From contig NZ_NFIV01000003.1 in the NCBI RefSeq assembly GCF_002159555.1, positions 1 to 64,000 of the forward strand: DNA of 64,000 nt, given 5' to 3'. The notes below the pieces were generated by a model. It searched no databases. It was not told where the DNA came from and saw only the letters and a program-made list of their open reading frames with translations. The position numbers and the translations under genes were made by a program. This DNA is from Muribaculum sp. An289. GTDB lineage: Bacteria; Bacteroidota; Bacteroidia; Bacteroidales; UBA932. Shown piece by piece: positions 6,880 through 59,570 of this stretch; the stretch's first letter is position 1; the number at the start of each line of letters is the position of its first letter.

Positions 6880-6910
6880 TTTGGTTCGAATGAAAAAATG
6901 TGTATCTTTG
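6880..6910 (+). promoter_or_regulatory. Promoter of tRNA-His
   Basis: TTTG at 6880-6883 and TATCTTTG at 6903-6910 are separated by exactly 19 nt, the Bacteroidetes -33/-7 promoter arrangement. The tRNA starts 28 nt after the -7 element. Confidence 0.8.
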
Positions 6911-7926: not shown

Positions 7927-7957
7927 TTTGCAACTAAATAAATTGTGCTTATCTTTG
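7927..7957 (+). promoter_or_regulatory. Promoter of tRNA-Ala
   Basis: TTTG at 7927-7930 and TATCTTTG at 7950-7957, spaced by exactly 19 nt, upstream of tRNA-Ala by 27 nt. Confidence 0.8.
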
Positions 7958-10923: not shown

Positions 10924-11151
10924 AATTTGCTTATGTCTAAAAGTCCGGTATGAAGGCCTCGTTTCCCGTATTCAGGCATACAGACCATTCCTGAAATAGG
11001 TGTCGGTTTTAAGAATTGCAGCAGGGTTGCCTTCGATTTTTCTGTAAAGGGGCATATATGCGGATTTGGTTCTACTATCAGTTTTTATCCTAATTTTTTT
11101 GTTTTTGTTATACTAATGTTATATATTTGTGATATTAAATATGACTTAGAT
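10924..11151 (+). pseudogene. Possible decayed C-terminal beta-strand domain
   Basis: After the shifted frame's stop at 10921 and another at 10951, the same frame is open to 11151. It reads like outer-membrane strands: IPEIGVGFKN, VAFDFSVKG, then GFGSTISFYPNFF. It has no start codon suited to a free gene before the antitoxin. I read it as the remnant of a barrel-like tail of the preceding CsgG-like gene or of a lost neighbour. This is inference from a short stretch. Confidence 0.3.
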
Positions 11152-11160
11152 ATGGAGACA

Positions 11161-11403
11161 ATGGCACTGGACAGAAAACAGACGGCTTTCAGACTTAGGA
11201 AAGACTTGATAGAAAGGCTTAAGATGGAGGCAAGGAAAGAGAACAGAAGCCTCAACAACTATGTAGAGAGTGTCCTTATGGATGTTGTCTACAGGACTCC
11301 CAATGATGAGACACTTGCATCAATGAAAGAAGCCAAAGAAGGGAGGAATCTTGAAAAACTCAATTTGGATACGTTTGAGGATTTTGTGAAATCGTTGGAG
11401 TAG
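11161..11403 (+). CDS. Type II antitoxin, RelB/DinJ-like (partner of YafQ-type toxin)
   Basis: The 80 aa product starts with a ribbon-helix-helix-like DNA-binding segment (KQTAFRLRKDLIERLKMEARKENRSLNNYVE, beginning near residue 6), followed by a flexible acidic tail (EKLNLDTFEDFVKSLE) that would bind the toxin. It is followed after 6 nt by the toxin gene. The start is taken at the ATG at 11161 (GGAGA lies just upstream); 11152 is possible. Such antitoxins bind their own promoter and repress the operon. The pair is more AT-rich than its neighbours, suggesting acquisition. Confidence 0.85.
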   Translation: MALDRKQTAFRLRKDLIERLKMEARKENRSLNNYVESVLMDVVYRTPNDETLASMKEAKEGRNLEKLNLDTFEDFVKSLE

Positions 11404-11409
11404 TCGGGT

Positions 11410-11682
11410 ATGTGGGAGTTGAAGATTACAAGGCAGTTCAAGAAAGATTTGAAGAAATATCGGAACAGGGCAGACGAGATATTCTGTCTTTCTGTCGTTT
11501 TGAAGATGTTGCAGGAAACAGGTACAGTGTCAAGAGAATATAAACCTCATCTTCTTGTAGGGGAATACACTGGTTTTATGGAATGTCATGTGAAAAATGA
11601 TTTGCTGCTGATTTGGCTGGACGAGAGGGAAAATATTATCAAACTGGTAAGGTTGGGCACTCATTCCGAATTGTTCAAATAA
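11410..11682 (+). CDS. YafQ-family toxin (mRNA interferase)
   Basis: The 90 aa product fits the RelE/YafQ superfamily: the KITRQFKKDLKKYRNR start, HLLVGEYTGFMECHV in the middle, LLLIWLDE, and the C-terminal RLGTHSELF, in which the His corresponds to the catalytic histidine of YafQ. In this family the toxin cuts mRNA at the ribosome when freed from its antitoxin. It directly follows the antitoxin gene and precedes a terminator, so the two make a complete, apparently intact module. Confidence 0.92.
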   Translation: MWELKITRQFKKDLKKYRNRADEIFCLSVVLKMLQETGTVSREYKPHLLVGEYTGFMECHVKNDLLLIWLDERENIIKLVRLGTHSELFK

Positions 11683-15230: not shown

Positions 15231-15261
15231 CAAATTTAACAACTAAAGGCGATTTGCCAAA
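15231..15261 (-). promoter_or_regulatory. Promoter of tRNA-Thr(CGT)
   Basis: Minus-strand TTTG (15258-15261) and TAAATTTG (15231-15238) are separated by exactly 19 nt. The -7 element ends 11 nt before the tRNA. It overlaps the alternative TTG start of the downstream plus-strand gene. Confidence 0.8.
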
Positions 15262-15277
15262 AAAATATATTGTTTTT

Positions 15278-16678
15278 ATGAAAAATAACGGCCTTTCCGT
15301 TGAAAAATTTTTCCTGGACGGGACTGTCCAGGGGCTGAAAACGATAGCCGCCGGGGCTGTTTCGGATTTCATAATGCTGTATCTGCGCGATGTCCGGGCC
15401 GATTTTCCTGAAGAATCGATGCGGAGGATGCTTTCCGTGGCCGAGGATACCGGCGCTTCCATGCTGTACTCGGACTATAAGGAAAGATTGTCCCCGGATG
15501 CGGACGGACGGGAAAAAATCATTCCGTGTCCTTTGATTGATTTGCAGGAAGGGGCCCTGAGGGACGATTTCGATTTCGGACCTTTGGTCATGGTGCGCCG
15601 TTCCGCATTTGTAAAGGCGGTTTCCATGATGGATACGGATTACAGGTACGGTGCGTTTTATGAGTTGAGGCTGAGGCTTTCGGAGCAAGGCGGAGGGTTT
15701 TCCTCCATCATCCGCATTGCCGAATACCTTTATACCGTAGAAGAAGCGCCTTCCGGGCAAGCCTCTGCCGGGCAATTCGCCTATGTCGATGCGCGCAACC
15801 GGGAAAGGCAGGTGGAAATGGAGAAAATCTGTACTGCATATCTGGGAAGGCTCGGTGCCCTTGTCCCCGGAAAGGCGGAAAAGGTGGATTTCGAACCGTC
15901 GGAAAATTTTCCCGTAGAAGCCTCGGTGATAATCCCCGTATACAACAGGGTGAAGACCATTGCGGATTCCATCCGGAGCGCCCTGTCGCAGAAAACGGAT
16001 TTCGCATACAATGTAATAGTCGTGGACAATTATTCCGATGACGGCACCTCGGAGGCAATCGAAAGGATTGCTTCGCTTCCCGAAAATTCGGGCCGGCTCG
16101 TGCATCTTGTCCCGTCGCGGCGCGGGCACGGGATAGGGGGCTGTTGGAACGAGGCCGTGCGGAGCAGGCATTGCGGCCGTTTTGCCGTCCAGCTCGACAG
16201 CGACGACCTCTATTCTTCGGAAAACACCCTTTCCTCGATAATTTCACTTTTCCAGAAGATGCATTGCGCCATGGTGGTAGGGACCTACAGGCTTTGCGAC
16301 TTCAATCTTGACGAAATACCTCCCGGAGTCATAGACCATAGGGAGTGGACCGATGCGAACGGACGTAACAATATATTGAGGGTGAACGGCTTGGGCGCTC
16401 CGAGGGCCTTTTATGCCCCTCTGTTGCGGGAATTCGGTTTCCCGGATACGAGTTACGGTGAGGATTATGCTGTCGTGTTGAGGTTCTGCCGGGAATATCT
16501 CGTCGGGCGTATATACGATGTCCTGTATCTGTGCCGCAGATGGGAGGGCAATTCCGATGCCGGTCTCGACAGGATACGGACCAATGCCAACAACAGGTAC
16601 AAGGATATGCTCAGGACATGGGAACTCAGGGCTAGGATAAGGATGAACGGGAAAACCGAGGAGGACTGTGGAAAATGA
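15278..16678 (+). CDS. Family 2 glycosyltransferase
   Basis: The 466 aa product contains a GT-A fold GT2 domain at about 205-330, starting [15 protein letters not shown], with the VDNYSDDGT strand and a metal-binding LDSDD. The first 200 residues look like the second half of another GT-A domain (LYSDY, then [14 protein letters not shown], then [10 protein letters not shown]), possibly a degenerate duplicate. The ATG at 15278 follows an A/T-rich stretch typical of starts here; an in-frame TTG at 15254 would add 8 residues. The last 4 nt overlap the next gene, so the two are translationally coupled. Donor and acceptor are unknown; the operon suggests a role tied to wall sugars or storage glycan. 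Confidence 0.8.
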
Positions 16679-18864
16679 AAATTTATCCCGAAAATACCGA
16701 GCTGTCCGTTTTTGCGGCGGCGCAACTGTCCTCGTGGCAGCTGGCCCGAGACAATTACCGTGCATTGAAGTCGGTGCGCACGAAGCGGCTGAAAATACGG
16801 GGTCTCGATGCCGTGCTCCAGTACAATCCGGCAAGGATAACATCTTCATCGGCCAAGATAGACAGCGAGTCGCTCGCTTCACGGGAATGCTTTCTGTGCC
16901 GTGAACACCGGGTTGACCAGTCGTATATCCCGTTCCATGGCAGGAAAGGTAAGGATTATGACATACTTCTGAACCCTTACCCGATATTCCAGTGGCATTT
17001 TACCGTCCCGCTGACATTCCATACCCCGCAGTCGATATGGCGCAGGTATACCGACATGCTTTCTCTGGCGGAAAGGTATCCTTCATACACAATCATCTAC
17101 AACGGGCCGCAGTGCGGGGCTTCCGCTCCTGACCACCATCATTTCCAGGCCGTCCCGGGGGGAAGCCTTCCGATGGAAACTGCCGCGATGCGCGCCTTTT
17201 CGGGTGACGGTGCGGATGGGGCCGACGGGACGGACGGAGTGCTCAGGCCATTGACTTCTTTCGGAAAGGCCTCGCTCTTCCTGATGAACCTCATGACCAC
17301 GGGAGTTTTTGTCATAAGGTCCTCGTCATCGAAAGATGCCGCAAAACTGTTTTACCGGCTCCTCGATTGCGTGCCGGACGACCCCGGACTGGCCGAACCG
17401 ATGATTAACCTGCTCTCGTTTTCACGGGACGGCATTTTTTATTCGATTGTTTTCTTGCGGAAAAAACACCGCAGCCACCATTATTATGCTCAGGGGAAAG
17501 AAAATATTTTCATGAGTCTCGGCTCCGTGGATATGGGGGGAGTGTTCATCGCCGCCCTTGAAAAGGATTTCGAAAAAGTGACTTCCAGGGATATCGAGGA
17601 TATATTGGATGAAATATCGATAGACAGGGATTTTCAGGAAAAATTAATTTCCCGCATCTGCCGGGAGCAGCCGGAAATCGAGGTGGGGATAATGTCCGCC
17701 CCGCAGATAAGGTTCAGGCTGCTGTATGACGGCGACGGTGTGAAAACCGTTTCGGCAAGGGACGGAAGGCTGCTGTATGACGGTGCCGTCTACGACGAGC
17801 TGTATTTCGACAGCCCTACGCGCTCTACATTTTTCGCCGAACCGGCATTCGAACTTTCAGATGTGACGATAGGAAAGGGCTTCCATTGGGAACGCAAGGA
17901 ATGCCAGGTGTTTGCCGGGGCTCTGAAACTCATTGCGGAAGGCGGCCTGGTGACTGCCGTGAACGTGATAGGGATTGAGGATTATCTGCTGAGTGTCATT
18001 TCTTCCGAAATGAAGTCCTCCGCCCCGAAAGAATTCCTGAAGGCCCATGCCGTGATTTCCCGTTCCTGGGCCCTTCTGAAGATAAGGAACCGCGGGGCGG
18101 CTGCCGTATCCGTGCGGGAGAAGGTGTCGGACGGCGAAATCATAAGGTGGTACGACGGTGACGGGCATGAACGCTTCGATGTGTGCGCCGACGACCATTG
18201 CCAGCGTTACCAGGGCCTTACGCGCGCTGTCGGACACAGGATAAAGGAGGCCATAGATGAGACATGGGGCGAGGTGCTCTCTTATGAAGGCAAAGTGTGC
18301 GATGCCCGTTTTTCGAAATGCTGCGGAGGAAAGACCGAGATTTTCAGTACTTGCTGGGACGACACGGACTATCCTTATCTTGTTTCGAAAGACGATCCGT
18401 ATTGCGGCAGGGCCGTGCCGGGCCTTCTCCGGACGGTTCTGAACGATTATGATATGGAAACGGAATCGTTTTACCGGTGGAAGGCCGGATACGGGGCGGA
18501 AGAACTGTCGGCTTTGGTCAGGGAACGTACCGGTATCGATTTCGGAACAGTCACATCCATGGTTCCCGTGCTCCGCGGCCCTTCAGACCGTATCGTAAAA
18601 TTGGAGATTGCCGGTACCAAGAGGAAAATGGTTTTCGGAAAGGAACTGGAAATCCGCAGGATACTTTCCCGCTCCCATCTGTACAGCTCGGCTTTCGACA
18701 TAGAATCCGGTGACGGAAGGTTCGTGCTGGAAGGGAAGGGCTGGGGGCACGGCGTGGGGCTCTGCCAGATAGGAGCCGCCGTCATGGCGGCGGAGGGCGC
18801 GGGATATAAGGAAATACTGGATTTCTATTATCCCGGGACTTTTATTATCTTTGCTGAACCGTAA
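16675..18864 (+). CDS. Fusion protein: DUF4922 HIT-like phosphorylase domain + SpoIID/LytB domain
   Basis: The 729 aa product joins two domains. The N-terminal part (about 1-330) fits DUF4922, related to HIT-family nucleotidyl phosphorylases: Cys72-x-x-Cys75, FQWHFTVPL and the active-site-like DHHHFQ at 153-158. The C-terminal part (about 345-729) is a SpoIID/LytB domain with the catalytic-type Glu445 in SSEMKSSAP, a CCGG motif and [15 protein letters not shown]. SpoIID proteins cleave denuded glycan strands and normally act outside the membrane, yet this protein has no signal peptide or TM segment. It overlaps the GT2 gene by 4 nt and is 12 nt from the AmpG-like gene. Confidence 0.82.
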
Positions 18865-18876
18865 AGATTTTCGATT

Positions 18877-20187
18877 ATGAGAAAAATCACTCCGTCGATT
18901 ACTCCGTGGTCCTGGGTGCCGTCACTGTATTTTGCGGAAGCGCTTCCGTATTTTGCCGTGAACGTCATATCCGTGACTATGTTCAAGAGACTGGGCATGA
19001 GTAATGCGGACATAGCCCTGTATACCGGATGGCTGTACCTGCCATGGGTAATCAAGCCGTTCTGGAGCCCCTTCGTGGATATCATCAAGACAAAAAGGTG
19101 GTGGGTGGTGGCCATGGAAATCCTTATGTGCTTCGCCCTTGCGGCTGTTTCCTTTGCGATAGACACTCCGGCGGGACCGGTTTTCCATTATATGCTTGCG
19201 GCCTTTTGGGTCATAGCCTTTGCTTCCGCCACACATGATATTGCGGCTGACGGATATTACATGCTGGCCTTGGATACCAACCAGCAGTCGTTTTTCGTAG
19301 GCATACGCAGCACTTTTTACCGCCTTGCCTCCATTTTCGGCCAGGGGGCAATAGTAGTGCTTGCCGGTTTTCTTGAGACAAAGGGCGGGGATATCCCGAA
19401 AGCCTGGCTGGTGACGATGCTTATCTTTACGTTGATTTTCGTCGTTATCACCTTATATCATACTCTGATTCTGCCGCGTTGCGAGCAGCGCCCCGTCCGT
19501 TCCGGAAAGGAGAGGAGCGGCAGCATCATATACATTTTCAAGGAATTCGGAAATACTTTCAGGACTTTCTTTTCAAAGAAAGGGGTGTGGGTAGCCCTCC
19601 TGTTCATGCTTCTGTACAGGCTTCCGGAAGCCTTTCTGATAAAGATGCTGTCTCCGTTCATGCTTGACCCGCAGTCGGCCGGAGGGCTCGGCTTTACGAC
19701 CCAGCAGGTAGGCGTGATATATGGTACCGTCGGCACCATAGGGCTCACCGTCGGGGGAATCGTGGGCGGGATTTATGCTTCCCGCAAGGGGCTCAAAAAG
19801 TCCATGATGCCGATGGCGCTTTCGCTTGCCCTGCCTTGCGCCGTTTTCGTGTACATGGCGTATTTCCAGTCGCAGAACCTGTATCTTGTCAATACTTTCG
19901 TCTTTCTGGAGCAGTTCGGCTACGGTTTCGGTTTTACGGCCTACATGCTGTACATGATTTATTTTTCCGAAGGCGAATATCAGACGGCCCATTACTCGCT
20001 GTGTACGGCCTTCATGGCTTTGGGAATGATGCTTCCGGGCATGGCGGCGGGGTGGATACAGGAACATATAGGTTATCTTAATTTTTTCTGGTGGGTGATG
20101 GTCTGCTGCATTGCGACGATAGCCGTTACCAGACTTGTCAAAGTGGATGCCGAATTCGGCAAGAAGGATTATGACAGCAGGGATTGA
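18877..20187 (+). CDS. AmpG-like muropeptide permease (MFS)
   Basis: The 436 aa protein has about 12 hydrophobic segments and the AmpG-like N-terminal features SLYFAEALPYF, LPWVIKPFWSP and the FASATHDIAADGY loop near 115-127. AmpG imports anhydro-muropeptides into the cytoplasm for recycling. The gene lies between the SpoIID fusion and the NamZ-like gene, with 12 nt before it and a 17 nt overlap after it, so the three are almost surely one transcript. The substrate is inferred from family and neighbours. Confidence 0.82.
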   Translation: MRKITPSITPWSWVPSLYFAEALPYFAVNVISVTMFKRLGMSNADIALYTGWLYLPWVIKPFWSPFVDIIKTKRWWVVAMEILMCFALAAVSFAIDTPAGPVFHYMLAAFWVIAFASATHDIAADGYYMLALDTNQQSFFVGIRSTFYRLASIFGQGAIVVLAGFLETKGGDIPKAWLVTMLIFTLIFVVITLYHTLILPRCEQRPVRSGKERSGSIIYIFKEFGNTFRTFFSKKGVWVALLFMLLYRLPEAFLIKMLSPFMLDPQSAGGLGFTTQQVGVIYGTVGTIGLTVGGIVGGIYASRKGLKKSMMPMALSLALPCAVFVYMAYFQSQNLYLVNTFVFLEQFGYGFGFTAYMLYMIYFSEGEYQTAHYSLCTAFMALGMMLPGMAAGWIQEHIGYLNFFWWVMVCCIATIAVTRLVKVDAEFGKKDYDSRD

Positions 20188-21466
20188 CAGGGGCCGCCTT
20201 TACGTGGCGGCCGTTTTCTTTTCGGTCTTCACGGCGTTTTTGTGCCTTGCGGCCTTGCCTGCCGCCGCACAGGGCGCCAAGGTGAAGACGGGAATCGAAG
20301 TGCTCGTGGAAAACGGTTTCGACATACTTGCAGGCAAGAGGATAGGCCTCGTCACCAATCCGAGCGGTGTGGACAGCCGTCTCAATTCGACCGTGGACAT
20401 ACTTTTCAACGCACCGGATGTCGAGCTCGTGGCTCTCTTCGGGCCGGAACACGGTGTCAGGGGCGACATATATGCCGGAGGCAAGGTGGAGGATTTTACG
20501 GATCCCACCACAGGCCTTCCGGTGTATTCGCTTTACGGGGCGACGAGGAGTCCTACGGGGGAAATGCTTGAAGGAATAGACATAATGGTTTATGACATAC
20601 AGGATGTCGGAGCGAGGTCCTATACTTTCATCAGCACTCTCGGGCTGGTCATGGAGGAATGTGCCGCACGCGATATCGAGGTCGTGGTTCTCGACAGGCC
20701 GAATCCTTTGGGCGGAAACAAGGTGGAAGGCTGTGTCGTCGAACCGGGGTTCTTTTCATTTGTCAGCCAGTACCCCATACCTTATATATACGGGCTTACG
20801 GTGGGCGAGCTTGCCATGATGATTAACAATGAAGGCATGCTCCGCGGCCAGAATGGCCGGAAGGAACCGTCGCGGTGCCGTCTTACTGTCGTGCCGATGG
20901 AGGGCTGGACGAGGGATATGGTCTATTCCGATACAGGGCTTCCGTGGATATTGCCTTCGCCCAACATCCCGCATAACGAATCACCCATGTTTTATCCGGC
21001 ATCCGGAATAATGGGTGAGTTGCGCAGCTATATGTCGATAGGTGTCGGCCATACCCTTCCTTTCCAGATTTTTGCCGCCCCGTGGATAGATGCGGACGAG
21101 CTTTGCGGTAAACTGCGGGAGTACAATCTTCCCGGAGTGGCGTTCAGGCCAATCTGGCTGAATCCGATGGCCGGTGCGTACAAGGGGAGCCTGATACAGG
21201 GTGTGCAGTTCGAATATGTGGATTTTGAGGAGGCCGATGTGACCGAAATCCAGTTCTGGGTGATGCAGGCCATAGCGGAGCTGTATCCGGAGCACAAGGC
21301 CCTTGAAGCCTGTGCGGGCTTCGGGCTGTTCGACAAGGTCTGCGGTACGGATGCAATCCGGAAAAAATTCGCCGAAAGGCACAAGGTAGAGGATATTCTG
21401 GAGTATTGGAGAAAAGATATTGAAACATTCAGGGCAAAAAAATCCAAGTATCATCTATATTTTTGA
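20171..21466 (+). CDS. DUF1343 / NamZ-like exo-beta-N-acetylmuramidase
   Basis: The 431 aa product has a signal peptide (about 1-35, ending AAAQ) and the DUF1343 fold: TGIEVLVENGFD, GLVTNPSGVD, LFGPEHGVRGD, DIQDVGARSYTF and LDRPNPLGG. NamZ, the characterised member of the family, removes non-reducing N-acetylmuramic acid from peptidoglycan fragments. The ATG at 20171 gives the signal peptide directly and is preferred to the upstream 20135 start, which would add 12 non-signal residues. The gene overlaps the AmpG-like gene by 17 nt. Confidence 0.87.
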   Translation: MTAGIDRGRLYVAAVFFSVFTAFLCLAALPAAAQGAKVKTGIEVLVENGFDILAGKRIGLVTNPSGVDSRLNSTVDILFNAPDVELVALFGPEHGVRGDIYAGGKVEDFTDPTTGLPVYSLYGATRSPTGEMLEGIDIMVYDIQDVGARSYTFISTLGLVMEECAARDIEVVVLDRPNPLGGNKVEGCVVEPGFFSFVSQYPIPYIYGLTVGELAMMINNEGMLRGQNGRKEPSRCRLTVVPMEGWTRDMVYSDTGLPWILPSPNIPHNESPMFYPASGIMGELRSYMSIGVGHTLPFQIFAAPWIDADELCGKLREYNLPGVAFRPIWLNPMAGAYKGSLIQGVQFEYVDFEEADVTEIQFWVMQAIAELYPEHKALEACAGFGLFDKVCGTDAIRKKFAERHKVEDILEYWRKDIETFRAKKSKYHLYF

Positions 21467-21505: not shown

Positions 21506-23728
21506 ATGAATAGGAAGACGATTATATATTGCAGCCTGGTAGTGGCAGTGCTGCTGCTGGCGACGGTTATATGTTTTTCGTTCCTGTTTTCCGATGAGGG
21601 GGGCAGGTCGGGACATTCACGTGACAGGAAGGATTTGCCCGTGTCCCTGGAGGCCGTGCCTTCGGATGCGGTGATGGTTTTGGAGTTCGATGATTATGCC
21701 CGGGGGGCAGAGGCGTTTTCAAGACAGTCGATGCCGCCGTATGTCTTTTCAGGAAAAAGTGCGGTGCCGAAGGTTTTGAGGGAATTGCCGGAAAAATTAA
21801 AGGAGGTTTCGGGTTCCCGTGCCTTGGACGGCCTGCTCCGTGGCGACCTTTCCTTATCGCTCCATTATTCCGGGCACAACAGGATTTCGCCGTTGGTGGC
21901 AATAACTCCGGCCGATTCGTCCATCGTCCGTCAGGTAGCCGAGGCTGTGTCGGACATTTCGGGGGACTGCGTTGTCCGCGCTGAAGGAGGCACGGTGGTG
22001 TTCACCGATTCGGAAGTCCTGGCGGAGTCTTCCCTGCGGCATCTGTCCGAAGGGGTTTCCATATTGGACAACCCGGATTTCGAGTCCATGGCCCTGTCGG
22101 CCGACAGGGGGACCAATCTCTATGTCAATCACCGGAACCTCGGAAAACTCTTTTCCGGATGCTTCAACAGCGGGTATCTCGGCTATGCCTCGTTTTTCCA
22201 GAATTTTTCATATTGGAGCTGCTATTCCCTCGAAGAAGTCGGTGAAAACGGCATGGATATAAGCGGTTTCGACATGCATAATGTCACGGTCGACGAATAT
22301 TCCTATGTTTTCAACGATTTGCGCCCCAAATCCCCGACTGTTTTTTCAGTCACTCCATATTATTCCTCGATGGCACTTTCGCTTCCTGTGTCGGATCTGA
22401 CTGCCCTGGTTTCGAATATCGACAGATACAGGGACGGTCAGGGACGTCTTGACAAGATGGTGGACAGGAGGCAGGAGCTTGCCCGGAAAGCGGGGATGTC
22501 GCCGGAAGAATGGGCTTCGTCCCTGTCGATTGGCGAAGTCGGCGTGATACGCTTCGATACGGGAGGCAAGGAGACTTTCGTAAATATGGTCAAGTGTGGG
22601 AATCCGTCGGCGGCAGGGGATACGGCCGTGATGAAAAAATATGATTATCCCGGTTTTCTGGCATCATTGTTCGGCTCTGTCTTTTCGCTGGCCGAGGAAG
22701 ACTATTGCGTTTCCGTTTCGGGATGGCTTGCGATAGGTCCTGAAAGTGCGATGCGGGATTTTCTCAACGGAAGTGCCCTGGAACTCGATTTGGCAAGGTA
22801 TCTGTCCGATGCAGGGTTGTCGGACGCCTTTCCGTCCAAATCGCTTCTTACGGTTTACCTTAACTTCGCTTCCGACCCTGACGGCCTTACTTCGCCGTTT
22901 AAGACGTCGCTTGCCCGGAGCATCGCCGAGGGGGCGGCAGGATATACGGTGGACATGTACGCATATTCGCTCGTGTCCGGCAAAAACGGGGCTGTCCCTT
23001 CGCTGAAAGTGAGGCTCAGCGATTATGAAGTGCCTACGGTGTCGAGATTCGACAGGGATACGGTCGTAGTCATTCCGAAAGGTCCGTGGAAAGTCAAGAA
23101 CTGCGGTACCGGACGAACCAACCTGATGTACCAGCAGGACAACATGTATATCTGCCTTACCGAAGAAAACGGGAAGGGCATCTGGAGCGCTCCGTTCTCA
23201 TCGCCGATTTGCGGGAATATAGATCAGCTGGATTATTTCGAGAACGGAAAATTGCAGATGATTTTCGCTTCCGGTTCGAAACTGTATGTCATCGACAGGC
23301 TCGGAAGGATGGTGAGGCCTTTCCCTGTTGATCTCGGGAAGGAGATATTACTGGGCCCTCAGGTCTACGATTTCAATCAGAACAGAAAATATAACGTGAT
23401 GGTGCTGCACACCGACAATACATTGGGGCTGTACGATCTGAAAGGCAGGTTGCGTGACGACTGGGTCGGATTCGATACCGATGAGACCATCAAGAAGCTG
23501 CCTCGTCTGATGGAAATAAACAGTTCGCTGTATTGGGTTGTGACGACCTCCCTGCAAACGGTAATCTGCGATTTTACGGGAAAACCGGTGGCGGATTTTT
23601 CCGGTTCGAAAAAGATGCGTCCCGATGTCAGGATTGAACCGTATGCCGGAAATTCGGTCGAGATAGAGACTTATGACGGTAAAATGTGGGTGCTCGACCT
23701 GAAAAGCGGGGAGTTCAGCAGGAGATAA
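21506..23728 (+). CDS. Membrane-anchored protein of unknown function (DUF3352-like N-terminal part)
   Basis: The 740 aa product has one N-terminal membrane segment (about 6-27) and a large extracytoplasmic part. Residues about 45-520 have the style of DUF3352-type proteins (VPSDAVMVLEFDD near 50, LPVSDLTALVSNIDRY later). Residues about 530-740 form repeated short strands (MYICLTEENG, KLYVIDRLGR, LGLYDLKGRL, TVICDFTGKP), as in a beta-propeller-like sheet. I know no function. The ATG at 21506 is chosen over a TTG at 21479 because it starts the membrane segment directly. It precedes the ABC exporter by 6 nt, so it may assist that transporter. Confidence 0.6.
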   Translation: MNRKTIIYCSLVVAVLLLATVICFSFLFSDEGGRSGHSRDRKDLPVSLEAVPSDAVMVLEFDDYARGAEAFSRQSMPPYVFSGKSAVPKVLRELPEKLKEVSGSRALDGLLRGDLSLSLHYSGHNRISPLVAITPADSSIVRQVAEAVSDISGDCVVRAEGGTVVFTDSEVLAESSLRHLSEGVSILDNPDFESMALSADRGTNLYVNHRNLGKLFSGCFNSGYLGYASFFQNFSYWSCYSLEEVGENGMDISGFDMHNVTVDEYSYVFNDLRPKSPTVFSVTPYYSSMALSLPVSDLTALVSNIDRYRDGQGRLDKMVDRRQELARKAGMSPEEWASSLSIGEVGVIRFDTGGKETFVNMVKCGNPSAAGDTAVMKKYDYPGFLASLFGSVFSLAEEDYCVSVSGWLAIGPESAMRDFLNGSALELDLARYLSDAGLSDAFPSKSLLTVYLNFASDPDGLTSPFKTSLARSIAEGAAGYTVDMYAYSLVSGKNGAVPSLKVRLSDYEVPTVSRFDRDTVVVIPKGPWKVKNCGTGRTNLMYQQDNMYICLTEENGKGIWSAPFSSPICGNIDQLDYFENGKLQMIFASGSKLYVIDRLGRMVRPFPVDLGKEILLGPQVYDFNQNRKYNVMVLHTDNTLGLYDLKGRLRDDWVGFDTDETIKKLPRLMEINSSLYWVVTTSLQTVICDFTGKPVADFSGSKKMRPDVRIEPYAGNSVEIETYDGKMWVLDLKSGEFSRR

Positions 23729-59489: not shown

Positions 59490-59520
59490 TTTGCAATTAT
59501 AAAAATTAGTTTTACCTTTG
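59490..59520 (+). promoter_or_regulatory. Promoter of the tRNA-tuf translation cluster
   Basis: TTTG at 59490-59493 and TACCTTTG at 59513-59520, spaced exactly 19 nt, 50 nt before the first tRNA. Confidence 0.8.
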
Positions 59521-59570
59521 CAATCCCATTTGGGGAGAAGGCCATAAGAGTGGCATATTTTTGAAATTTT

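What the first reader, a model, noticed from the sequence alone, without database searches (positions are those of the whole stretch)
15278..21466. Candidate muropeptide recycling operon: GT2, HIT-like/SpoIID fusion, AmpG-like, NamZ-like
Four genes are packed with overlaps of 4 and 17 nt and one gap of 12 nt. An exported exo-muramidase (NamZ type), an AmpG-like importer and a SpoIID glycan-cleaving domain form a logical path from wall fragments to cytosol. The HIT-like phosphorylase and glycosyltransferase could then move the released sugar into a nucleotide-sugar or storage pathway. I know of no description of this combined set.
Basis: partly seen in the sequence, partly recalled or inferred. 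Interest (0 to 1): 0.65.

Follow-up and report, generated by a model that had tools for sequence, protein, structure and literature searches.

The report
Gut bacterial cell-wall sugar salvage operon
This gut bacterium carries a four-gene set, related to one already known from an oral relative, that most likely collects broken cell-wall sugars and reuses them, and it includes an unusual wall-cutting enzyme that seems to work inside the cell instead of outside.

Summary
The four genes, their order and the 4/12/17-nt junctions are real. The unit GT2 - HIT(DUF4922) - SpoIID - AmpG - NamZ recurs across Bacteroidales with many fusions. It is not undescribed: the same order, by published annotation, is the GppX-controlled muropeptide/MurNAc operon of Tannerella forsythia, co-transcribed there with murTKQ.

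Here SpoIID and HIT lack signal-like N termini, whereas 10 of 10 ordinary SpoIIDs from 10 related genomes have one. SpoIID active-site and zinc residues are kept.

The window's genome gave no match for MurQ, AnmK or NagZ-type GH3 but has an AmgK-like/MurU-like pair. Over 295 genomes of the order, AnmK occurs in 12 of 78 with the GT2 marker and 182 of 217 without; relatedness is not corrected for.

Best reading: a cytosolic line that processes peptide-free disaccharides imported by AmpG. It is a candidate answer to a question a 2020 paper left open. The chemistry of SpoIID, GT2 and HIT here is inferred, not shown.

The parts
15278..16678 (+). GT2 protein, 466 aa, predicted cytosolic: degenerate N-terminal GT-A-like half plus GT-A domain with DSDD (307-310), ED (395-396) and RRW (420-422)
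   Evidence: D307, D309, E395, D396, W422 invariant in 40 rows; pLDDT 89.4; K4CP, TarS/TarP, PmHS2
16675..18864 (+). HIT(DUF4922)-SpoIID fusion, 729 aa, no signal-like N terminus
   Evidence: (pLDDT 90.3, pTM 0.87)
16687..17640 (+). HIT-like part of the fusion (residues 5-322), Apa2/GalT-like; CxxC 72/75 and HxHxQ 154-158
   Evidence: Apa2 4i5t E 1.2e-6; Z 21.9, 3.5 A over 265
17662..18858 (+). SpoIID part of the fusion (residues 330-728); catalytic Glu445, zinc-site H498/C504/H508/C509
   Evidence: (5i1t Z 28.7, 2.0 A over 269)
18877..20187 (+). AmpG-like MFS importer, 436 aa
20171..21466 (+). NamZ-type exo-beta-N-acetylmuramidase, 431 aa, with signal-like N terminus
   Evidence: (4k05 E 1.6e-144)

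Best explanation
A peptidoglycan-sugar salvage operon whose first three enzyme activities form a cytosolic processing line. Outside the inner membrane, exported NamZ trims MurNAc from wall glycans. AmpG brings peptide-free GlcNAc-MurNAc and GlcNAc-anhMurNAc into the cytosol. There the SpoIID domain, a lytic-transglycosylase/muramidase fold that has lost its export signal, breaks or opens the muramic-acid bond of the imported sugars. The GT2 protein and the HIT (Apa2/GGP-like) domain handle nucleotide-activated sugar made from or spent on them. In this genus the freed MurNAc goes through an AmgK-like kinase and a MurU-like transferase to UDP-MurNAc; in relatives also through MurK/MurQ. Shown here: genes, order, folds, conserved catalytic residues, lack of export signals (by hydropathy and reading), the searched gene inventory of the genome, and the co-occurrence pattern. 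Shown by others in T. forsythia: co-transcription, regulation and AmpG transport. Inferred: substrates and reactions of GT2, HIT and SpoIID, and that the three work on one substrate.
For: Conserved neighbourhood and fusions, including one GT2-HIT-SpoIID frame of at least 1006 aa (cut by its contig end) and one GT2-HIT chain, so the three share a compartment at least there. Only 0 of 80 HIT N termini pass the hydropathy cut, and 1 of 24 stand-alone SpoIIDs, where the stretch is a domain strand after the start MKEP; against 65 of 69 NamZ and 10 of 10 ordinary SpoIIDs. Catalytic Glu in 75 of 75 and each zinc ligand in at least 74 of 75 module SpoIIDs. The NagZ-type GH3s that I read carry signal-like N termini (7 of 7), so no cytosolic NagZ was seen; other hexosaminidase families were not searched. 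AnmK in 12 of 78 genomes with the GT2 marker versus 182 of 217 without; NagZ-type missing in 22 of 78 versus 10 of 217. AmgK-like or MurQ present in 29 of 31 module genomes of the 59-genome sample, and MurQ more often with the module (18 of 31 versus 6 of 28, p 0.0074). L112: GT2-SpoIID-AmpG-NamZ-unknown-AmgK-like-MurU-like. T. forsythia AmpG imports GlcNAc-MurNAc and GlcNAc-anhMurNAc, and the processing of imported fragments was stated to be open. A chlamydial SpoIID hydrolyses denuded glycan as a muramidase.
Against: No activity is known for these GT2, HIT and cytosolic SpoIID proteins. Textbook SpoIID cuts MurNAc-GlcNAc, a bond that a GlcNAc-MurNAc disaccharide does not contain. The AmgK-like kinase is as common without the module (21 of 28) as with it (22 of 31, p 0.78), so its presence is no specific support. 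HIT is absent in 4 of 31 module genomes, and SpoIID or AmpG is not nearby in many loci outside the class (SpoIID 5 of 20, AmpG 7 of 20), so the set is not indivisible. GT2 was not found upstream in 24 of 74 testable loci, and in some genomes the genes lie apart (G036, G043, G048, G056). The AnmK pattern follows lineages; within the window's own family it is weak (9 of 23 versus 9 of 12, p 0.075). 56 of 78 marker genomes keep a NagZ-type GH3.
Confidence: 0.5

Rival explanations
1. The cytosolic SpoIID domain uses lytic-transglycosylase chemistry backwards: it opens the 1,6-anhydro ring of imported GlcNAc-anhMurNAc by transfer to water or to an acceptor, replacing AnmK. GT2 and HIT provide or recover the acceptor sugar.
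For: AnmK is rare where the GT2 marker is present (12 of 78 versus 182 of 217). The window genome has an SLT-type lytic transglycosylase (L141:210-1262) and AmpG but no AnmK match. T. forsythia uses GlcNAc-anhMurNAc but grows poorly on free anhMurNAc.
Against: The pattern may only mark lineages that make GlcNAc-MurNAc instead of anhydro sugars: T. forsythia extracts gave 8.6 times more GlcNAc-MurNAc than GlcNAc-anhMurNAc. 12 genomes have both. Within-family support is weak. No such reverse activity of a SpoIID is known to me.
Confidence: 0.2
2. An intracellular peptide-free glycan is built by GT2 from salvaged sugar and later cut by SpoIID; HIT makes or consumes the nucleotide sugar. A sugar store.
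For: GT2 resembles a soluble polymerase with two GT-A domains (K4CP). SpoIID acts on denuded glycan.
Against: The N-terminal GT-A-like half shows no conserved DxD. No primer, export or store is known to me.
Confidence: 0.12
3. GT2, HIT and SpoIID serve glycoprotein or surface-glycan metabolism and only share a promoter with the wall-salvage genes.
For: The T. forsythia paper notes protein-glycosylation genes in the operon. Outside the class GT2-HIT often stands without AmpG.
Against: SpoIID active site fully kept. AmpG within reach in 59 of 63 loci. AnmK and NagZ patterns.
Confidence: 0.13
4. Chance neighbours in a dense + strand run of genes.
For: The run continues downstream with unrelated genes.
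Against: Order conserved over many families and repeated fusions.
Confidence: 0.02

Closest known systems
Tannerella forsythia muropeptide/MurNAc operon Tanf_08345-08385 (PMC5388701, PMC7670621)
   Same: Gene order gtf, gtf, lytB, ampG, ybbC(NamZ). That the second 'gtf' is the HIT protein, and that ybbC is NamZ, is inferred from order and recall, not tested by sequence. Importer plus exo-muramidase.
   Different: There it is co-transcribed with murT-murK-murQ and a xanthan-lyase gene. Here neither is adjacent, no MurQ match was found in the genome, and HIT and SpoIID are fused.
SpoIID lytic transglycosylases (C. difficile 5i1t, B. anthracis 4rwr, Waddlia SpoIID)
   Same: Whole-domain fold match (Z 28.7), catalytic Glu, zinc ligands as in C. 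difficile.
   Different: No signal-like N terminus; fused to a nucleotide-handling domain; extra cysteines at 549, 550 and 560.
Yeast Ap4A phosphorylase Apa2 and GDP-sugar phosphorylases (HIT/GalT branch)
   Same: Fold (Z 21.9), HxHxQ motif, DUF4922.
   Different: 14-15% identity in the structural alignment; CxxC as recalled for GalT; no Pfam match other than DUF4922 in this part; fused to SpoIID.
E. coli-type recycling (AmpG, NagZ, AnmK, MurQ)
   Same: AmpG import.
   Different: NagZ-type, AnmK and MurQ not found in this genome.
Pseudomonas-type AmgK-MurU salvage
   Same: Kinase-nucleotidyltransferase pair elsewhere in this genome (names from Pfam families and pairing, not from comparison with characterised AmgK or MurU).
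   Different: Kinase carries a RapZ C-terminal domain; located away from the operon here, but in one run with it in L112.

Membership tests
T. forsythia-type muropeptide salvage operon | GT - HIT - SpoIID/LytB - AmpG - NamZ gene order | tested here: met
   T. forsythia gene identity beyond its published annotation not tested
T. forsythia-type muropeptide salvage operon | murT-murK-murQ in the same transcription unit | tested here: not met
   not adjacent; no MurQ match in G000
T. forsythia-type muropeptide salvage operon | co-transcription and muropeptide-dependent use | not testable with these tools
   needs RNA and growth assays
SpoIID/LytB domain family | profile above curated cut-off | tested here: met
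   TIGR02669 180.7 bits, cut-off 83.3; PF08486 81.9, cut-off 23
SpoIID/LytB domain family | catalytic Glu and zinc ligands | tested here: met
   E445, H498, C504, C509 in 75 of 75 and H508 in 74 of 75 module sequences; roles; residue matching by alignment and spacing
Stage II sporulation protein D (equivalog) | TIGR02870 cut-off | tested here: not met
   135.7 bits, cut-off 234.75
SpoIID acting on the wall outside the membrane | signal peptide or N-terminal anchor | tested here: not met
   with control; by hydropathy and reading, not by a dedicated predictor
Lytic transglycosylase | forms 1,6-anhydroMurNAc | not testable with these tools
   needs enzyme assay
Ap4A / nucleotide-sugar phosphorylase (HIT/GalT branch) | DUF4922 above cut-off, HxHxQ motif, Apa2 fold | tested here: met
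   184.5 bits, cut-off 23.6
Ap4A / nucleotide-sugar phosphorylase (HIT/GalT branch) | phosphorolysis of a dinucleotide or nucleotide sugar | not testable with these tools
   substrate unknown
AmpG family TIGR00901 | above curated cut-off | tested here: not met
   E 5.3e-49 but 167 bits, cut-off 350; so 'AmpG-like'; its Bacteroidales relatives score up to 564 bits against it
NamZ exo-beta-N-acetylmuramidase | both NamZ domains above cut-off and export signal | tested here: met
   287 and 133 bits; N-terminal hydrophobic stretch 2.52
NamZ exo-beta-N-acetylmuramidase | exo-muramidase activity | not testable with these tools
   needs assay

The most novel reading that the evidence does not exclude
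Bacteroidales use a cytosolic SpoIID, teamed with a GT2 and a HIT nucleotide-sugar enzyme and sometimes fused to them, as a previously unrecognised route for anhydro-muro-disaccharides. It would replace both NagZ and AnmK by acting on the disaccharide, not on free anhMurNAc.
Probability: 0.22. Interest if true: 0.8.

Novelty: new variant of a known kind. Interest (0 to 1): 0.52.

Why it matters
How T. forsythia processes the wall fragments that AmpG imports was named as an open question in 2020 (PMC7670621), and no title in the listings I searched later offers an answer. The window and its relatives single out three cytosolic proteins as candidates. They also show that the GT2 marker of the set and AnmK seldom occur in the same genome. 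If right, an abundant group of gut and oral bacteria recycles its wall by enzymes that annotation calls sporulation and glycosyltransferase proteins. That could affect which wall fragments they release to the host.

Tried and rejected
SpoIID as a periplasmic cutter: rejected, no export signal seen. Chance clustering: rejected by synteny. LacZ, P6, ABC and AMP-ligase as parts of the unit: rejected; shared in the genus but, L030 apart, not beside the unit in the named loci, which show only weaker scattered hits to LacZ, ABC or the S41 protein in L068, L092 and L086; not all loci reach that far. MurQ catabolism in this genome: rejected, no match. GT2 run in reverse plus HIT as a two-step disaccharide phosphorylase: considered, not adopted, because I expect a high cellular UDP-GlcNAc pool to oppose it (recalled energetics, no computation). 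Operon promoter: none convincing. The sigma-70 scan is near chance (10 found, 7.8 expected), and the Bacteroidetes-type match at 15231-15261 is on the minus strand, facing the tRNA. Species-tree-corrected test of the AnmK pattern: not done, no marker genes at hand and no genome searches left. Literature searches: one search found no paper; one search found one, unrelated by its abstract. Fold searches list other HIT and GT-A families; families not listed there are not excluded.

How the counts were made. In the 295-genome table 'with the module' means the GT2 marker alone at E 1e-60 or better; adjacency was not tested there, and one of the 78 (G203, E 1.8e-82) is far weaker than the rest. NagZ-type means a match to NF003740 at E 1e-25 or, in the 59-genome table, better than 1e-28; the latter line was drawn after seeing the list, and in both samples no match reaches the curated cut-off of 207 bits. 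Listings leave out 197, 12 and 81 genomes without a match; their states, and the families of G288 and G322, were worked out by elimination. In the 59-genome table the module was read as presence of its genes, not always adjacent; G003 was counted on HIT alone and G014 on HIT and GT2, both at contig ends. MurQ there means 280 bits or more (three of 24 below the cut-off of 302); AnmK includes one short match at the edge of usefulness (G015).
Full report
Where it is. The window is contig 23 of a 2.32-Mb, 36-contig genome, 99.84% complete. G001, the same genus, appears to be Candidatus Merdivivens pullicola: its contig of 12,483 bases has the same length and the same matches as named locus L030. 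The window is therefore most likely from that genus of Bacteroidales.

Observation. The four genes, coordinates and junctions hold. Upstream lie a tRNA-Thr on the minus strand and a LacZ-type GH2 gene; downstream P6 (no Pfam or NCBIfam hit), an MsbA-like ABC protein and an AMP-ligase. In the genus these flanks are shared (G001 over two contigs, and G002). In the other named loci they were not seen beside the unit, apart from weak scattered hits.

Conservation. DUF4922 occurs in 27 of 59 genomes, the window's own included. In those 27 short loci GT2 lies beside or in the same frame in 23 and SpoIID in 21, although the loci hold only 1.5 kb on each side. Fusions vary: HIT-SpoIID, GT2-HIT (L025) and GT2-HIT-SpoIID in one frame of at least 1006 aa, cut by the contig end (L021). 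In 80 loci of named genomes, the best 80 of 574 confirmed, AmpG is near in 59 of 63 testable loci, NamZ in 44 of 55 and GT2 upstream in 50 of 74. Four genomes have GT2-SpoIID-AmpG-NamZ without HIT; in one of them (L110) two other genes sit between SpoIID and AmpG. The GT2 marker is in 78 of 295 genomes of the order and 40 of 296 of the phylum, 37 of these outside the order. In 20 of those 37, HIT sits near GT2 in 16, SpoIID in 5 and AmpG in 7.

What is already in print. T. forsythia Tanf_08345-08370 (xanthan lyase, gtf, gtf, lytB, ampG, ybbC) is one transcript with murTKQ and is activated by GppX; its AmpG was shown to work in E. coli (PMC5388701, passages and one section read). A later paper reports that this AmpG imports GlcNAc-anhMurNAc and GlcNAc-MurNAc and calls the processing of imported fragments an open question (PMC7670621, passages). 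MurK and MurNAc-salvage context: PMC10465942 and PMC5790795 (passages). The NamZ1/NamZ2 paper is not held; I know it from a reference list and recall. DUF4922 is found in two papers, both on plant GDP-sugar phosphorylases by title or abstract (one passage read in PMC11047344). Searches on NamZ/DUF1343, SpoIID with Bacteroides, and recycling in Tannerella or Bacteroides listed no paper whose title treats the trio (listings only, 25 of 42, 5 of 5, 25 of 36, 18 of 19 and 20 of 33 papers shown). Most subscription papers were not searchable.

Compartment. NamZ proteins pass a simple hydropathy cut in 65 of 69 cases; HIT N termini in 0 of 80, GT2 in 1 of 54, and stand-alone SpoIID in 1 of 24, where the stretch is a domain strand after the start MKEP. 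Read by eye, the 24 stand-alone SpoIIDs start at or shortly before the domain, mostly with MxEPxVxVG and without a hydrophobic leader. The SpoIIDs of ordinary type fetched from 10 of the same 59 genomes have a hydrophobic leader in 10 of 10, and their domain follows right after it. The module SpoIIDs form one group against these in a quick tree (75 against 10; support 0.63, modest). This is prediction without a dedicated signal-peptide program.

Activity. The AlphaFold2 model of the fusion is confident (pLDDT 90.3, pTM 0.87). Its SpoIID half matches C. difficile SpoIID (5i1t, Z 28.7, 2.0 A over 269) and its HIT half yeast Apa2 (Z 21.9, 3.5 A over 265). The likely equivalents of C. difficile E101, H134, C140, H145 and C146 (roles: PMC6221140 passages) are kept in at least 74 of 75. 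HIT keeps CxxC and HxHxQ in all 23 aligned rows. GT2 keeps DSDD, ED and RRW. Its best Foldseek match is the two-domain chondroitin polymerase K4CP, over both halves but with a different domain arrangement (rmsd 23 A); by Z the best are single GT-A domains over the C-terminal half (6p61, Z 23.7). A chlamydial SpoIID hydrolyses peptide-free glycan with mostly non-anhydro products (PMC6635528 passages), so hydrolysis by this fold has precedent.

Downstream path. In the window's genome MurQ, AnmK and NagZ-type GH3 give no match at E 0.001 or better. An AmgK-like kinase with a RapZ C-terminal domain is present, followed with a 4-nt overlap by a MurU-like transferase. These two names rest on Pfam families and pairing. 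In L112 such a pair lies in one run with GT2-SpoIID-AmpG-NamZ, one unknown gene between. Of 31 module genomes in the 59-genome sample, 29 have MurQ or the AmgK-like kinase; but the kinase is as common without the module (21 of 28) as with it (22 of 31), while MurQ is commoner with it (18 of 31 versus 6 of 28).

Co-occurrence. In 295 genomes of the order at least 90% complete: AnmK in 12 of 78 with the GT2 marker and 182 of 217 without (Fisher p 1.4e-27). By family majority, 23 families have marker without AnmK, 4 both, 73 AnmK only and 9 neither. NagZ-type GH3 is missing in 22 of 78 versus 10 of 217 (p 1.2e-7). In the 59-genome sample NagZ-type is missing in 18 of 31 versus 1 of 28, and within the window's family in 17 of 23 versus 0 of 12; AnmK is present in 10 of 31 versus 21 of 28 (p 0.0016), but within that family in 9 of 23 versus 9 of 12 (p 0.075). 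No NagZ-type match reaches its curated cut-off. The NagZ-type proteins read have signal-like N termini (7 of 7), so they too would be outside the cytosol. P-values ignore relatedness; few families in the sample vary in both traits, so replacement of AnmK is a hypothesis.

Verdict. A real, conserved salvage operon of a published type, in a variant with HIT fused to SpoIID and without murTKQ. The part that is new to me is the cytosolic SpoIID clade with its GT2 and HIT partners and the rarity of AnmK beside it. I rate the broad salvage role as likely, the three-enzyme cytosolic line as about even, and the anhydro-opening chemistry as about one in five.

Noticed in passing
L141:6028-8243 (own genome, contig 31): AmgK-like kinase fused to a RapZ C-terminal domain, followed by MurU-like transferase; related proteins in 43 of 59 genomes, a few matches stopping before the RapZ part. 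RapZ is, as recalled, an amino-sugar sensor.
   Followed up: partly
window 11116-11682: HicB/DUF6364-like protein and YafQ-type toxin gene pair (PF15738 E 3.4e-27).
   Followed up: no
window 21506-23728: 740-aa protein with N-terminal hydrophobic stretch and no Pfam or NCBIfam match, kept next to the MsbA-like gene in the genus.
   Followed up: partly
window, e.g. 6880-6910, 7927-7957, 15231-15261 (minus), 59490-59563: Six exact Bacteroidetes-type promoter matches against 1.19 expected; five of them lie upstream of tRNA genes. The consensus is recalled.
   Followed up: no
L141:3951-6209 minus: Nicotinate phosphoribosyltransferase fused to an isochorismatase-type domain.
   Followed up: no
L119:6095-7030 minus: A GNAT protein sits between HIT and AmpG in one relative whose SpoIID follows MurQ on another contig.
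   Followed up: no
L096:4403-6349, L102, L107, L108: AmpG-like open frames of 621-676 aa, longer than the 436-aa window protein; the MFS profile matches L096 in three stretches, the best at 475-641.
   Followed up: no
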